33,308 nucleotides of DNA from a virus. The stretch spans positions 1 to 33,308 of the IMG/VR virus record IMGVR_UViG_3300023116_000176; one strand, written 5' to 3'. The position numbers were made by a program, and so were the translations under genes. Of this stretch, positions 1 to 33,308 are shown one piece after another. The notes beneath the pieces were generated by a model. It had not been told where the DNA came from and did not search any database. It saw only the letters and a program-made list of their open reading frames with translations. How positions within the stretch are numbered: position 1 is the first letter of the stretch; each line of letters starts with the position of its first letter.

Positions 1-176
1 CAATAACACCCGCAAAATTAACGAGTGCATTAGTAAAAGATGATACTCCTGTAAGAGTTAATAAAAATAGTATAAATACTAATATGACTATTGCATCGGA
101 TGAGAATGCATTTGTTGCTGGACCAGTAACAGTCAATAGTACAATAACAATAAACGGAACATTTACAGTAGTTTAA
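1..176 (+). CDS. C-terminal end of a tail-fibre-like protein (partial)
   Basis: The frame is open from base 3 to a TAA at 174-176, giving the last 57 residues of a protein whose start lies outside the window. The tail reads as a short beta-rich repeat with an ASDENAFVAGPVTV core, the kind of terminal segment seen at the end of many phage tail fibre or tail proteins. The next fibre gene starts one base after the stop, so it belongs to the fibre block. The frame does not match that of the truncated gene at the right end of the window. Assignment as a fibre end is by pattern and location. Confidence 0.6.
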   Translation, partial: ITPAKLTSALVKDDTPVRVNKNSINTNMTIASDENAFVAGPVTVNSTITINGTFTVV

Positions 177-16303: not shown

Positions 16304-16390
16304 TTACTCCTCTTTATTATCACCATAAAAAAATTCATATAGTAACCAAAACAATACTACTATGAATGTAACTTCAAATATGTCAGGCAT
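16304..16390 (-). CDS. 28-aa single-span membrane microprotein
   Basis: A 28-codon frame whose ATG shares a base with the TAA of the nuclease gene (TAATG). The product is MPDIFEVTF followed by an Ile/Val/Leu/Phe/Trp-rich span (residues ~9-22), then an acidic tail (GDNKEE). Its last codons contain the GAGGAG ribosome site of the HTH gene. It has no ribosome site of its own, so expression would depend on coupling. It is one of two such micro membrane frames in the leftward block. Confidence 0.5.
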   Translation of the reverse strand: MPDIFEVTFIVVLFWLLYEFFYGDNKEE

Positions 16391-17229
16391 TACTCGAAGA
16401 AATTATAAATTTCATTTACCTTAGGATAATTAACTATATGAGTTAAGAACCTAGGACCAGTAGAATAAGCAAATACTTTGACATCTGGATAGCAATGCTT
16501 CTTATATACACAGTAACTACACTCAGTACATAGCTTCATGTTACCTGACTTGCCATCTGGTACAGGTTCAAAGCAACGCTTAGGTTTGTCTTTGCTAGCT
16601 GTTAACCATTTAAGATATGCTATGCGTTCTTTAACTGGACTGTCGTATTTGAATGACTCAAAGTGTGTACACAATGCACCGTTCTGTTTATCGATTGCTA
16701 GCCATCCACCTTCATCTGTACCACTTGCTTCAGCATAACCATGTAATTGTTTGATGTAACCGAATGGGTCATCTTCTCTAAGCGTACCTTCTTTGAACTT
16801 CTTAAAGCCGTATGTAGAGGTTGTTTTTACATCCATAAGGTACCCATCAATGACGCAGTCCATCGAGCCTTTTATCCCTTCTATTTCTACTTCAGCTTGC
16901 TTTCCTTCTACAGTATGTCCAGATAACTCTGCTAATGCTAGAACTAGATGTTCTGTTGCATGACCGTATAGAAACTTCATAAGAGTTTGAGGTGTCATTT
17001 TTTCTGCTTCGTAGTCGTTGTATAAATACCACAAGTACAAATCTTGTTTACCTATGTTAGACATTCTAAGCTTGCGGCTGTCGTCACGCTCAGTAATTAC
17101 AGTACGCAGCATATCCTTCATTGCCTCACCGAACTCATTTATTACTTGATCGGTGTCAACTCCGTCTGCTGCTTTGTTTGTTTCTAGAACTTCGTAGATG
17201 TCATCTACTAATGTGCGTATGTTTTTCAT
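16390..17229 (-). CDS. PD-(D/E)XK (RecB/Cas4-like) nuclease with C-terminal cysteine cluster, 279 aa
   Basis: The nuclease core is visible: GHATEH at 89-94, GSMDCVIDG with Asp124, MDVKTTS with Asp133 and Lys135, and YIKQLHGY with Gln161 and Tyr165, which matches RecB-family motifs GxxxE, GxxD, DxK and QxxxY. The C-terminus has Cys219, Cys234, Cys237, Cys240 and Cys246 (CxxCxxC-x5-C), suggestive of the iron-sulfur clusters of Cas4 and AddB. It replaces the gp6-type exonuclease position of T7 and likely degrades or processes DNA for replication and recombination. AAGGAAGAG precedes the ATG, and a TATAAT lies 31 bases upstream. Confidence 0.8.
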   Translation of the reverse strand: MKNIRTLVDDIYEVLETNKAADGVDTDQVINEFGEAMKDMLRTVITERDDSRKLRMSNIGKQDLYLWYLYNDYEAEKMTPQTLMKFLYGHATEHLVLALAELSGHTVEGKQAEVEIEGIKGSMDCVIDGYLMDVKTTSTYGFKKFKEGTLREDDPFGYIKQLHGYAEASGTDEGGWLAIDKQNGALCTHFESFKYDSPVKERIAYLKWLTASKDKPKRCFEPVPDGKSGNMKLCTECSYCVYKKHCYPDVKVFAYSTGPRFLTHIVNYPKVNEIYNFFE

Positions 17230-23890: not shown

Positions 23891-24158
23891 TACGCCTCCT
23901 CTCTTCTATACTATAAACTTGTGCTAGTGCAATCCAGAATGCACCATCGAAATGGTCATAGAAATTTCTCTCTGCTAGTCCGTGATTGTCATACCAGTTC
24001 CAAAAATCTTCTGGCCAAATACCCCAGTCAAGCATGTCTTTGACAGCTGCTGTTAGATTGCCATTAACAAACATGTCATACAACCAATCACCATAGGTTC
24101 TGATGTCGTCTACATGGTCAAATTTGGGAAGCTCATCATCTAATTCTATGCGTTTCAT
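23880..24158 (-). CDS. Hypothetical early protein, 92 aa
   Basis: An acidic, Trp-rich protein (LDWGIWPEDFWNWYDNHGLA at ~43-62) ending in a short basic helix (EERRRNEA). The start overlaps the upstream stop as ATGA, with GGGAG eight bases before it. No family is recognised. The aromatic-acidic middle looks like a protein-binding surface, which is only a suggestion. Confidence 0.6.
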   Translation of the reverse strand: MKRIELDDELPKFDHVDDIRTYGDWLYDMFVNGNLTAAVKDMLDWGIWPEDFWNWYDNHGLAERNFYDHFDGAFWIALAQVYSIEERRRNEA

Positions 24159-24355
24159 TGCTCATTCTCCCATGCTTGTTTGAGTCTACGCATTTCTTCT
24201 TGCAACTCTACTAACTCTTTGGCAGAGCAGTCAATATTCCATTGCAGTTGGTCAATACGGTCACGGACAAAACCCATACGAGTCAATGTGTTGGTATCTG
24301 GGTCAATAAAACCCAGTCTAATCTGTTCTTCTAGCCAGTCTTTGATTTTGCTCAT
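24155..24355 (-). CDS. Coiled-coil early protein, 66 aa
   Basis: The open frame extends nine codons further, but GGAG at 24363-24366 lies seven bases before the ATG at 24353-24355, and the upstream part is covered by another small frame ending one base before. This start gives MSKIKDWLEEQIRLGFIDPD. The C-terminal half is a coiled coil (SAKELVELQEEMRRLKQAWE). No family is recognised. Confidence 0.6.
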   Translation of the reverse strand: MSKIKDWLEEQIRLGFIDPDTNTLTRMGFVRDRIDQLQWNIDCSAKELVELQEEMRRLKQAWENEQ

Positions 24356-24356
24356 A

Positions 24357-24440
24357 CTATTTCTCCATCCATAGTGCAACAATGCACATAGTTAAAAATA
24401 TCATTAAGAAAATAAACAGAATAAAGATAGAGTCATACAT
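24357..24440 (-). CDS. 27-aa single-span membrane microprotein
   Basis: A 27-codon frame of which residues ~5-24 are almost entirely Ile, Leu, Phe, Met and Val, ending WMEK. It overlaps the stop of the 72-aa gene by eight bases and ends one base before the next ATG, and its last codons carry that gene's GGAG. Like the 28-aa frame at 16304-16390, it looks like a coupled micro membrane peptide. The lack of a strong ribosome site lowers confidence. Confidence 0.45.
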   Translation of the reverse strand: MYDSIFILFIFLMIFLTMCIVALWMEK

Positions 24441-24673: not shown

Positions 24674-24698
24674 AAAAAAAGGGAGTCCGAAGACTCCC
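24674..24698 (-). terminator. Strong Rho-independent terminator after the first leftward gene
   Basis: On the minus strand the sequence is GGGAGTC-TTCG-GACTCCC followed by seven T. That is a seven-base-pair GC-rich stem (24681-24687 with 24692-24698) closed by a UUCG tetraloop, with the T-tract at 24674-24680. It starts about seven bases after the stop of the 133-aa gene and before the rest of the early cluster. This is the best terminator in the window. Confidence 0.9.
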
Positions 24699-24704
24699 TA
24701 GATG

Positions 24705-25106
24705 TTATAGTTTTCTTGGTTCGAAGTTAGAATCTACTTCTTGACTTGATGTGTCGAAGATTTTCTTCTTGATTGGTTTGGTATATTCTTTACCAACTAC
24801 TTCTTTGTATGCAATCTTGAGTGCATCTACGATGGGTGTTAGTTCATCGACTGTATCTTCATCTTGTTTAATTAACTTTTGAAGATATTGCATTTCTTTA
24901 GCATCTGATTCTGAACCAGTATCCATTTCTTTGAGTAAATCCCAGTTTGCAACTCGTTTGCGATGTTGCTTAACTGTATATTCAATATCATTTGATAATG
25001 AATATAGGTTTGCTCGAAGAACCCTGACTTGAGTGCTATACTCAATGTTGTATGCTTCTGTATTAAGTTGTTTGATTGATTTTATAAAAGTATCTATAGT
25101 TTTCAT
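24705..25106 (-). CDS. First leftward (early) protein, helical, 133 aa
   Basis: A charged, mostly helical protein with coiled-coil tendency (residues ~20-100) and a basic segment near 110-118 (KPIKKKI). AGGAG is six bases before the ATG. It is the gene nearest the control region and has its own strong terminator, so it could be transcribed alone at high level immediately after infection. No family is recognised. A host-takeover role is inferred from position only. Confidence 0.65.
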   Translation of the reverse strand: MKTIDTFIKSIKQLNTEAYNIEYSTQVRVLRANLYSLSNDIEYTVKQHRKRVANWDLLKEMDTGSESDAKEMQYLQKLIKQDEDTVDELTPIVDALKIAYKEVVGKEYTKPIKKKIFDTSSQEVDSNFEPRKL

Positions 25107-25159
25107 TTTTATCTCCTAAATTGGAAGTTTATATTGTTGTCCGAAGACACTAAATAGAT

Positions 25160-25259
25160 ACCATGCGACAGGACTGCGTCACCGAAGGGAAACAATAATC
25201 ACGGAGGTCGCTCCAGCGGATACCGTTATTATTGTTGACGCAAAGGACTGTCGTATGGT
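25160..25259. other. 100-base long-stem structured element
   Basis: The two halves pair over most of their length. ACCAT with ATGGT (25160-25164, 25255-25259). A G-T pair. CGACAG with CTGTCG (25166-25171, 25248-25253). A small internal loop. TGCGTCA with TGACGCA (25175-25181, 25236-25242). A ten-base one-sided bulge. ACAATAAT-c-ACGG with CCGT-t-ATTATTGT (25192-25204, 25223-25235). The tip contains CGC/GCG. About 36 pairs in 100 bases. Pairing is slightly better as plus-strand RNA (a G-U instead of C-A), but on the minus strand it would lie in the leader of the first early gene. Confidence 0.75.
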
Positions 25260-25314
25260 TTAGTTGTCATACTGAAGGACACCAATATGAAACTACTAAT
25301 TTACTGAGATACAA

Positions 25315-25437
25315 ATGGAAACTATAGGTGCTGTGTGTGATTGTATTGTGTTAGTAACTAAATACAGAACATGCAATGATTGTGATGTAATTAAGTGGTT
25401 TGATTGTGAATCATACAGACATTTATCTGAAATCTGA
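25315..25437 (+). CDS. Doubtful cysteine-rich 40-aa frame in the control region
   Basis: An ATG at 25315 opens a 40-codon frame with five cysteines (residues 8, 10, 20, 23 and 31), including CDC and CNDC. It has no ribosome site and is on the strand opposite to the neighbouring early genes. The cysteine pairs resemble the zinc ribbons of the early cluster, which is why it is listed, but chance is the simpler explanation. Confidence 0.2.
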   Translation: METIGAVCDCIVLVTKYRTCNDCDVIKWFDCESYRHLSEI

Positions 25438-25640
25438 TGACTACAGCGGTAGACAGCAGACAGACATAAGTAAATTAGTGTGAGTTTTAGGTAGGGGGGA
25501 GCCTACTCTGGATACTGCAGTAATATATAAACAATCACTAGCAGATTAAATAGGATTTGAGACCTCTTAAGACTGTTTTTAACAAAAAGTAAAGAAAATA
25601 CTGGACAAAAGTTAATTCATCAGGTAGACTCGACAGCGAC

Positions 25641-25784
25641 TACTTAAGTAAAACATCAGAAACATCTGCAAACAGGAGAGAAAATTAGCAGACAGGGACG
25701 ACACCTTAGGGGCCGACTCAGCCTCCTACCACTAATAAAACCTCCTACTAAAGATACTACTGATAAACTTAAGTAAACTTAAGT
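25641..25784. repeat. ACTTAAGT palindromes before the packaging genes
   Basis: TACTTAAGTA lies at 25641-25650 and two tandem copies of AAACTTAAGT end at 25774 and 25784, their centres exactly ten bases apart, about one helical turn. A related TCTTAAGA is at 25565-25572. The tandem pair sits 28 bases ahead of the TerS-position start. The phasing suggests a protein-binding operator, but CTTAAG also occurs elsewhere in this AT-rich genome. Confidence 0.4.
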
Positions 25785-25812
25785 AATTTAGCCTCATTAA
25801 GGAGATAACTAA

Positions 25813-26202
25813 ATGGATGGTAGAGCTAACAACGCTAATCTTCCTCATTTGTTTAAAAAAGGTAAGTCTGGGAATCCCAATGGCAGACCTAAAGGAAGTG
25901 TCAATAAATATACTCAATTAGCTAGAGAACTCTTAAGCTCTAGAGGAGAAGAGATAGTTGAGGTAGTCATAGATAAAGCATTAAAAGGTGATGTTCATTG
26001 TCTTAAAATGTGTATGGATAGAATTGTTCCTCCGCAGAAGGCGGTAGAAATTAAACACACTAAAGATGATGGTGGTTTAATTATTAATGTTGGAACTACT
26101 GACCAAATATCTGAGATGGCTAAAGGTAAGAAACTTAAGAATCCTACTATTAAGTCTGATGATGAGGTTATTGCTGAGGTGGTAGCTGATGGCAGAACTT
26201 AA
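25813..26202 (+). CDS. Putative small terminase subunit (DUF5681-type N-terminus), 129 aa
   Basis: FKKGKSGNPNGRPKGSVNKY at residues 14-33 is the signature of DUF5681, a short DNA-binding-like motif common next to phage terminases. A helical middle follows (LARELLSSRGEEIVEVVIDK). It lies directly before the large terminase, overlapping it by 14 bases, the normal place for the small subunit that recognises the packaging site. AAGGAG is eight bases upstream. The assignment is by motif and position. Confidence 0.75.
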   Translation: MDGRANNANLPHLFKKGKSGNPNGRPKGSVNKYTQLARELLSSRGEEIVEVVIDKALKGDVHCLKMCMDRIVPPQKAVEIKHTKDDGGLIINVGTTDQISEMAKGKKLKNPTIKSDDEVIAEVVADGRT

Positions 26203-31730: not shown

Positions 31731-31809
31731 ACAAGAAAAAAATAAAAAAGCACCTAAGAAAAAAAGATTAGCTGGTTTTTTATCTATGCGTAGAAGATTA
31801 AGATTATGA
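31723..31809 (+). CDS. Highly basic 28-aa microprotein
   Basis: A 28-codon frame overlapping the FmdB-like gene by eight bases and the fibre gene by four (ATGA). More than half of the residues are Lys or Arg (RRRLRL at the end). The coupling on both sides supports translation. Such peptides could bind nucleic acid or the membrane; no family is known. Confidence 0.5.
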   Translation: MPKQEKNKKAPKKKRLAGFLSMRRRLRL

Positions 31810-33107
31810 GTATAGATAGAGGTTTTGGTCTTGGGACATCTACTTATGTAGCTGACCAGTATAATTTAGATGATTATATTACTGATGCAGAAGCAGCTCA
31901 AGCAGCAGCTGAAGCGGCACAAGCGGCAGCAGAGGCAGCTCAAGCAGCAGCAGAAACTGCAGAAACTAATGCTGAAGCTTCAGAGTCTAATGCTTCTACT
32001 TATGCTACTACTTCTGGAACTAATGCAACTAACGCTTCTAATAGTGCTAGTGCTGCAGCTACAAGCGAAACAAATGCTGCAACCTCAGAAACTAATGCAG
32101 CTACAAGTTCAACTGCAGCAGCAACTTCAGCAACATCAGCAGCAACTAGCGCTACTAATGCAGCCACAAGTGCAACTTCTGCAAGTACTGCACAGACTGC
32201 GGCAGAGGCAGCACAGACTGCAGCTGAGTCTGCTCAAACAGCAGCCGAAGCAGCTGAAACAGCAACAGAGAATTTATTTGACCAGTTTGGTGACCAATAC
32301 TTAGGTTCTAAAGCATCAGACCCTACAACAGATAATGATGGTGACCCACTGACAACTGGTGATATTTATTGGAATAGTACAGATAATGTACTTAAATTTT
32401 ATACAGGTAGTGCTTGGACAGCACCAGAAGATGTAGCAACAACTGCTGCAACTAATGCAAGTAATAGTGCCACAGCAGCTGCAACCTCAGCTACTAATGC
32501 TGCGACATCAGAAACTAATGCAAGTAATAGCGCAACTAGTGCTTCTACCTCTGCAACTAACGCAGCAACTAGTGAAACTAATGCTGCTACTTCTGAAACT
32601 AATGCTAGTAATAGTGCAACTTCAGCAGCTACTTCAGCAACTAATGCTTCAACTAGTGCATCTAGTGCAGCAACAAGTGCATCTAATGCATCTACTTCAG
32701 AAACTAATGCTGCTACTAGTGAAACTAATGCAGCAACTAGTGCAACCTCTGCATCATCTAGTGCAACAGCAGCAGCTTCTAGTGCAACTAGTGCTTCTAC
32801 TTCAGCAACTAATGCAGCTACTTCAGAAACCAACGCAGCAACATCAGAATCAAATGCTTCTACTTATGCAACAAATGCAGCAACATCTGCTTCTAACGCA
32901 AGTACCTCGGAAACCAATGCAGCAACTTCAGAAAGCAATGCTTCATCTTCGGCTACTTCAGCGGCATCAAGTGCAACAAGTGCAAGTACATCAGCAACAA
33001 ATGCTGCAACAAGTGAAACAAACGCAGCTACTTCAGCAACCGCAGCAGCAGCAAGTGCAGCCGCAGCAAGTGGAGCAGCCTTAGCATTCGCAATAGCTTT
33101 AGGATAA
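31806..33107 (+). CDS. Tail fibre with long Ala/Ser/Thr/Asn repeat stalk, 433 aa
   Basis: After a short N-terminal module (SIDRGFGLGTSTYVADQYNL) come AEAAQAA repeats (~28-55) and then ATSETNAATS-like repeats (~55-150). A small globular domain at ~155-205 follows, with GDQYLGSKASDP and YWNSTDNVLKFYTGSAW, a fibre domain widespread in marine phages. A second repeat stalk runs to the end (~215-425). These repeats form trimeric rods. The C-terminus ends without a tip domain, so tips may be separate proteins such as those encoded next. Confidence 0.8.
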   Translation: MSIDRGFGLGTSTYVADQYNLDDYITDAEAAQAAAEAAQAAAEAAQAAAETAETNAEASESNASTYATTSGTNATNASNSASAAATSETNAATSETNAATSSTAAATSATSAATSATNAATSATSASTAQTAAEAAQTAAESAQTAAEAAETATENLFDQFGDQYLGSKASDPTTDNDGDPLTTGDIYWNSTDNVLKFYTGSAWTAPEDVATTAATNASNSATAAATSATNAATSETNASNSATSASTSATNAATSETNAATSETNASNSATSAATSATNASTSASSAATSASNASTSETNAATSETNAATSATSASSSATAAASSATSASTSATNAATSETNAATSESNASTYATNAATSASNASTSETNAATSESNASSSATSAASSATSASTSATNAATSETNAATSATAAAASAAAASGAALAFAIALG

Positions 33108-33111
33108 TATT

Positions 33112-33308
33112 ATGGCAAACGCATTTAAATCATATCAATCAACATCGGTAACTACAGAGGCAACTGTATTAACTGGACCATCAGCTACAGAAACTACAGT
33201 TATTGGACTTAGTATTGCTAATACATCATCTAGTACAGCAACTGTAGATGTTAAATTAAACACAGCTTATATGGTTAAAGCAGCTCCTATACCTGTAGGT
33301 GGTTCTTT
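33112..33308 (+). CDS. Small tail/fibre-associated protein, truncated at window end
   Basis: An ATG five bases after the fibre gene opens 65 codons running off the end. MANAFKSYQSTSVTTEATVL is the N-terminus of a short conserved marine phage protein, usually ~100-110 aa, located near fibres. It has a beta-rich pattern, and the IVKDAPIP-type motif is present as MVKAAPIPVGGS. About 40 residues are missing. Confidence 0.65.
   Translation, partial: MANAFKSYQSTSVTTEATVLTGPSATETTVIGLSIANTSSSTATVDVKLNTAYMVKAAPIPVGGS

What the first reader, a model, noticed from the sequence alone, without database searches (positions are those of the whole stretch)
25160..25259. 100-base near-continuous hairpin in the divergent control region
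Four paired segments stack with only small loops and one ten-base bulge, so the element could fold as a long RNA or extrude as a cruciform. It contains no start or stop signal and no poly-T tail, so it is not a simple terminator. Its place, just ahead of the first early gene and opposite the packaging block, suits an origin, a packaging mark, a riboregulatory leader or a small RNA. I know of no described element of this type for this phage group.
Basis: seen in the sequence. Interest (0 to 1): 0.65.

Follow-up and report, generated by a model that had tools for sequence, protein, structure and literature searches.

The report
RNA hairpin core of mirror-image gene
The hairpin is real; it is the centre of a larger mirror-image stretch of phage DNA that in many relatives pairs a whole early gene with a non-coding copy of itself, and its pattern of sequence changes suggests that the core works as folded RNA read from one strand.

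Summary
The 100-base hairpin is real (RNA z -7.9; 0 of 200 shuffles fold as well). It is the centre of a quasi-palindrome (25094-25327 strict; 25048-25376 softer scoring) that reaches the start of the first leftward gene (24705-25106, "gene0"). About a dozen relatives (TerL 81-98% identical) have a 1.0-1.6 kb quasi-palindrome here: one arm is gene0 (126-145 aa), the other its non-coding mirror copy with 15-37 frameshifts. In the L018 lineage each gene arm is ~90% complementary to its own mirror arm (aligned columns) while homologous gene arms differ by ~20%, so the arms evolve together. The window has lost most of the outer mirror arm but keeps the core. Over 31 loci, core mismatches are 93 G.T to 9 A.C on the + strand (composition-corrected P 3e-11; loci are related, so indicative). 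This points to a core kept as RNA on the rightward, terminase-ward strand rather than as a DNA cruciform; the L018 lineage lacks the bias. No Rfam family or cultured phage matches. Best reading: a structured non-coding RNA, perhaps a long leader of the rightward transcript, inside an inverted duplication homogenised by template switching. Transcription, promoter and function are not shown.

The parts
25160..25259 (+). the reported hairpin: centre of the palindrome
   Evidence: RNA z -7.9, DNA z -6.8
25094..25327 (.). core quasi-palindrome, strict scoring (left arm 25094-25181, right arm 25236-25327)
   Evidence: 67% identity to own reverse complement, E 3e-15; 66 bits, at most 36.5 in 200 shuffles
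25048..25376 (.). core quasi-palindrome, softer scoring
   Evidence: 63% identity; soft scoring is not calibrated on AT-rich DNA, but 0 of 200 shuffles of this region reach the soft score
25198..25229 (+). apical motif ATCACGGAGG-N-GGATACCGTTAT shared with L006
24705..25106 (-). gene0: first leftward gene, 133 aa, helical hairpin protein of unknown function; in relatives it forms one whole arm of the palindrome
   Evidence: ORF; family; model pLDDT 85.7; no Pfam or PHROG family
24680..24699 (-). intrinsic terminator of gene0
   Evidence: 8-pair stem and T7 tail
25315..25437 (+). mirror of the gene0 start: ATGGAAACTATAG against ATGAAAACTATAG, in a 40-aa frame with no Shine-Dalgarno; probably not a gene
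25260..25812 (+). non-coding stretch from the hairpin to terS, without a rightward intrinsic terminator by the scan used
25813..26202 (+). putative terminase small subunit (DUF5681), first gene of the rightward block
   Evidence: position next to TerL

Best explanation
The hairpin is the conserved core of a structured non-coding RNA read from the + strand, towards the terminase genes, at the point where leftward (early) and rightward (packaging and structural) transcription part. Most likely it lies in the long untranslated region of the rightward transcript, where its helix could act in cis on RNA polymerase or on RNA processing. Shown: the fold, its presence in relatives, the strand-specific G-U pairing, the lack of long ORFs and of rightward terminators. 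Inferred: that it is transcribed, that it is a leader rather than a free small RNA, and the cis action. The core sits in an inverted duplication: in many relatives the whole first early gene is mirrored by a non-coding copy, giving a 1.0-1.6 kb quasi-palindrome. Clustered co-changes that are often transversions suggest that the arms are kept complementary by short template-switch copying during replication. The window is a partly deleted state that keeps the core.
For: Core mismatches 93 G.T to 9 A.C on the + strand over 31 loci; composition predicts 64 to 38, P 3e-11. In L024, L042 and L030 the core is 14:0 but the arms of the same phages 10:16, against a mutational strand bias. Structural alignment of eight cores: conserved G-U pairs, 12 of 33 pairs with two-sided changes. 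+ strand of the window region folds better against shuffles (z -7.8) than the - strand (z -4.4). No rightward terminator within 1 kb of the centre in 31 loci, although a gene0 terminator lies in the mirrored position in about 20. Mirror arm non-coding in all 12 rods examined. Concerted evolution of the arms. Template switching described in PMC8794818 and PMC8604942.
Against: No transcript data and no convincing promoter. The L018 lineage shows no G-U bias in core (2:4) or arms. Possible -35/-10 pairs near the right end of some rods would make a rightward transcript without the hairpin. The loci are related and several are copies of one contig, so the P values are indicative. Arms are absent in some relatives.
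Confidence: 0.45

Rival explanations
1. DNA-level element: the palindrome acts as DNA, as a replication origin, cruciform, regulator-binding site or packaging mark in the divergent control region.
For: It sits at the divergent hub next to terS; cumulative GC skew turns here, but so does gene direction; short operator-like repeats such as GTCCTATGGAC lie beside it in several relatives; the L018 lineage has no G-U bias.
Against: The 93:9 excess of G.T over A.C on one strand is not expected for a duplex DNA site.
Confidence: 0.2
2. By-product: an inverted duplication of the first early gene that is homogenised by template switching and slowly lost, with no function of its own.
For: The outer arms range from complete to absent among relatives; the window lost most of them while L006, with TerL 98% identical, kept them; co-changes are clustered and as often transversions as gene substitutions in general.
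Against: Interruptions are conserved in position (17 columns broken in 5-6 of 6 taxa, about 0.2 expected); the core persists where the arms are gone; strand-specific G-U bias; a compact phage genome keeps some 500 non-coding bases.
Confidence: 0.2
3. Antisense control: the + strand RNA overlaps the leader and start codon of gene0 and represses it, as RNA-OUT does in IS10 (general knowledge).
For: The palindrome covers the Shine-Dalgarno and ATG of gene0; + strand RNA signature.
Against: The antisense part is paired in cis with the mirror arm, which should hide it; no promoter found.
Confidence: 0.1
4. Assembly or amplification artefact (fold-back chimera).
For: Inverted duplications are known amplification artefacts (general knowledge).
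Against: The arms differ at 10-40% of positions, interruptions are shared between taxa, and the same structure recurs in contigs of different metagenomes.
Confidence: 0.01

Closest known systems
Quasipalindromes homogenised by replication template switching (PMC8794818, PMC8604942)
   Same: Imperfect inverted repeat whose arms change together in clustered, multi-base steps
   Different: Those papers treat RNA-gene stems and short inverted repeats; here up to 1.6 kb, with one arm a whole protein gene and the other non-coding, at one fixed place in a phage group
Coding palindromes of Nematomorpha mitochondria (PMC6649704)
   Same: Long inverted repeats overlapping protein-coding sequence
   Different: There the repeats are perfect, up to 284 bp, inside genes, with both arms coding; here imperfect, about 1 kb, with one arm non-coding
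Structured phage leader RNAs such as lambda N leader/RNase III sites, T7 RNase III sites and HK022 put RNA (from general knowledge)
   Same: Interrupted helix in an untranslated phage transcript near an operon start
   Different: Far longer; transcription, cleavage or antitermination not shown; no sequence similarity tested
IS10 RNA-OUT (from general knowledge)
   Same: Interrupted hairpin RNA from the strand opposite a gene start
   Different: Much longer, and its antisense part is paired with a mirror arm in cis
Obelisks and other rod-like RNA replicons (PMC11922315, PMC13096302)
   Same: About 1 kb rod-like fold with one protein-coding frame
   Different: Here a segment of a dsDNA phage genome; helical-hairpin protein, no replicon or circular RNA evidence

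Membership tests
Any Rfam 15 family | covariance-model score at or above the family's gathering score | tested here: not met
   no match in the window or in 8 relatives; no relevant match at E up to 5
Template-switch-homogenised quasipalindrome | arms of one locus more alike than homologous arms of relatives | tested here: met
   L088/L093: own arms about 90%, gene arms 79%, non-coding arms 70%
Template-switch-homogenised quasipalindrome | clustered co-changes not limited to transitions | tested here: met
   runs of adjacent co-changes; L088/L093 26 transversions to 20 transitions
Structured RNA under selection | two-sided changes that keep pairing, above shuffles and slid registers | tested here: met
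   108 pairs against a shuffle mean of 40 (max 53) and at most 26 when slid; not decisive alone, since template switching gives the same
Structured RNA under selection | strand-specific G-U pairing | tested here: met
   93:9 over 31 loci; absent in the L018 lineage
Structured RNA under selection | the RNA is made | not testable with these tools
   no transcript data
Intrinsic terminator | GC-rich stem followed at once by a run of T | tested here: not met
   no T run after the full hairpin; only weak small-stem matches inside it
Replication origin | replication initiates at the site | not testable with these tools
   the GC-skew turn is confounded with gene direction
Obelisk | Oblin-1 protein | tested here: inconclusive
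   gene0 has no significant PDB match and only weak viral model matches, and its model is a helical hairpin; no direct comparison with Oblin-1 was made
Obelisk | autonomous circular RNA | not testable with these tools
   the element lies in DNA contigs between phage genes; RNA forms were not examined

The most novel reading that the evidence does not exclude
A mirror-gene element: an uncultured phage lineage keeps a non-coding mirror copy of its first early gene so that a rightward transcript folds into a kilobase rod-like RNA with fixed bulges, its complementarity renewed by copying between the arms as the gene diverges, so that the two strands of one stretch carry a protein gene and an RNA structure.
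Probability: 0.2. Interest if true: 0.85.

Novelty: new variant of a known kind. Interest (0 to 1): 0.6.

Why it matters
I found no description of a phage gene whose whole length is mirrored by a non-coding arm that evolves in concert with it; the search was limited to open-access papers. If the rod is transcribed, it is a new large RNA architecture in an uncultured phage group with many metagenomic relatives. If it is not, it is a natural record of template-switch homogenisation at kilobase scale, and a warning that compensatory changes alone do not prove a functional RNA. Strand-specific metatranscriptomes can separate the two.

Tried and rejected
Soft-scored palindrome search: rejected as evidence on its own, because it gave spurious ~54% hits with tiny E-values in HTVC103P and HTVC202P; strict scoring and shuffles were used instead. 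Full-length rod in the window, suggested by the MFE fold: not upheld, the outer arms pair at about chance. Simple pseudogene decay: rejected for the L018 lineage, where own arms are closer than homologous arms and interruptions are shared. Stepwise compensation through G-U as the only cause: not supported by the transition/transversion counts. Regular spacing of bulges: only some loci differ from random. Promoter prediction: overall no better than shuffles. GATAGACAATC as promoter or terminal repeat: at both ends in a few loci, role unresolved. gene0 function: no Pfam or PHROG family, no significant PDB match, weak matches to uncharacterised viral models. TerL relatives in cellular genomes: none. 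Single-subunit RNA polymerase: none found, but the search's controls did not ring, so absence is not shown.

Full report
OBSERVATION. The hairpin at 25160-25259 is real: RNA MFE -48.7 kcal/mol, z -7.9, no shuffle as good; DNA z -6.8. It lies between a leftward gene of 133 aa (24705-25106, here gene0) and the rightward putative terminase small subunit (25813-26202, DUF5681). Comparing the region with its own reverse complement shows that the hairpin is the centre of a 234-base quasi-palindrome, 25094-25327 (E 3e-15; 66 bits against at most 36.5 in 200 shuffles), which extends to about 25048-25376 with softer scoring. Its outer part covers the Shine-Dalgarno and start codon of gene0 and gives a mirrored ATG at 25315. 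The same 851 bases occur in a second assembly (L004). The MFE fold suggests a longer rod, but beyond the core the arms pair at about chance (8 and 7 of 200 shuffles).

RELATIVES. Relatives were fetched through the terminase large subunit and through gene0. At the same place L006 (TerL 98% identical) has a palindrome of 1124 bp, and L017, L018, L024, L030, L035, L042, L044, L053, L135, L143, L146 and L149 have palindromes of about 1.0-1.6 kb. In all of these one arm holds the whole of gene0; in the rods measured it ends 26-55 nt after the stop codon. The window/L004, L019, L046, L051, L113 and L151 have partial versions. L012, L013, L014, L022, L032, L033, L064, L136 and L147 have a gene0 homologue without a palindrome over its start, though most keep a shorter inverted repeat in the region. 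gene0 diverges fast: the window protein is 34% identical to that of L006.

THE MIRROR ARM. In twelve rods it aligns to gene0 at 78-91% but carries 22-42 indels, 15-37 of them frameshifting, and the mirrored start is followed by only 2-27 codons before a stop. An intrinsic terminator follows the leftward unit in about 20 of 31 loci, while no rightward terminator was found within 1 kb of the centre in any; in the sequences read by eye the mirrored T tail is altered in most. gene0 is under purifying selection (dN/dS 0.20-0.56 between L018-type homologues; the L143 rows of that table used a misplaced frame and are ignored).

CONCERTED EVOLUTION. For L088 and L093 the gene arms are 79% identical and the non-coding arms 70%, while each gene arm is about 90% complementary to its own mirror arm (aligned columns). 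In six taxa 108 of 489 pairs show two-sided changes that keep pairing, against a mean of 40 (max 53) in shuffles and at most 26 when the partner is slid. Interruptions fall in homologous columns: 17 columns are broken in five or six of the six taxa, about 0.2 expected. Co-changes come in runs and are as often transversions as gene substitutions in general. That is the footprint described for template switching (PMC8794818, PMC8604942), so covariation alone does not prove selection on the fold.

STRAND. A test that template switching does not mimic is the kind of mismatch left between the arms. Read on the window's + strand, G.T mismatches are pairs in + strand RNA and A.C mismatches are not; on the other strand the roles swap. 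Over 31 cores the counts are 93 G.T and 9 A.C; composition predicts 64 and 38, P 3e-11. The loci are related, so P is only indicative: 19 loci have more G.T and 4 more A.C. In L024, L042 and L030 the core is 14:0 and the arms of the same phages 10:16, which argues against a mutational strand bias. The arms of L006, L044, L053 and L143 are also biased (12:1, 23:4, 19:2, 17:5); the rest of the L018 lineage is not. A structural alignment of eight cores has conserved G-U pairs and two-sided changes at 12 of 33 pairs. The + strand of the window region folds better against shuffles (z -7.8) than the - strand (z -4.4).

MECHANISM. The reading that fits best is a structured non-coding RNA on the rightward strand, probably in the untranslated region that leads to the terminase and structural genes. 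Promoters could not be located. Possible -35/-10 pairs near the right end of some rods would make a second, hairpin-free rightward transcript. How the RNA would act (on read-through, RNase III processing, stability, or antisense to gene0) is open.

PROTEIN AND NOVELTY. gene0 has no Pfam or PHROG family, no match in cultured phages, and a confident helical-hairpin model (pLDDT 85.7) with no significant PDB match and two weak viral-model matches. No Rfam family fits and no cultured phage record shares the DNA. Literature searches returned no description of such an element, within an open-access library only.

LIMITS. Everything rests on sequence. The contigs are fragments of uncultured viruses, several loci are copies of one contig, host and transcription are unknown, core boundaries were set by hand from the palindrome hits, and the number of independent lineages behind the strand bias was not counted on a tree.

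Noticed in passing
L024, L030, L042, L044 and, without full arms, L025, L028 (positions): An 11-base motif GATAGACAATC lies at both ends of the element in inverted orientation; it could be an operator, a leader element or a boundary.
   Followed up: partly
L143 284-1844: The longest quasi-palindrome seen, 1561 bp, reaching beyond the gene on both sides.
   Followed up: no
L095 and L113, central region (alignment A6): Nearly the same core in two contigs whose gene0 belong to very different subfamilies; suggests that gene and mirror arm are exchanged or rebuilt around a constant core.
   Followed up: no
window 24155-24382 (-): Small leftward protein with a weak match (E 0.0024) to a PHROG of Psu-like polarity suppression proteins that overcome Rho.
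   Followed up: no
window 1-176 and 33112-33308: Open frames at the two ends look like parts of one gene, so the record may be a circularly permuted genome, but the frames do not join exactly.
   Followed up: no
window 31806-33107 (+): Long protein of Ala/Ser/Thr/Asn repeats; the repetitive reading may be a tail component.
   Followed up: no
window 16390-17229 (-): Cas4-domain exonuclease-like protein (PHROG E 1e-39) in the replication block.
   Followed up: no
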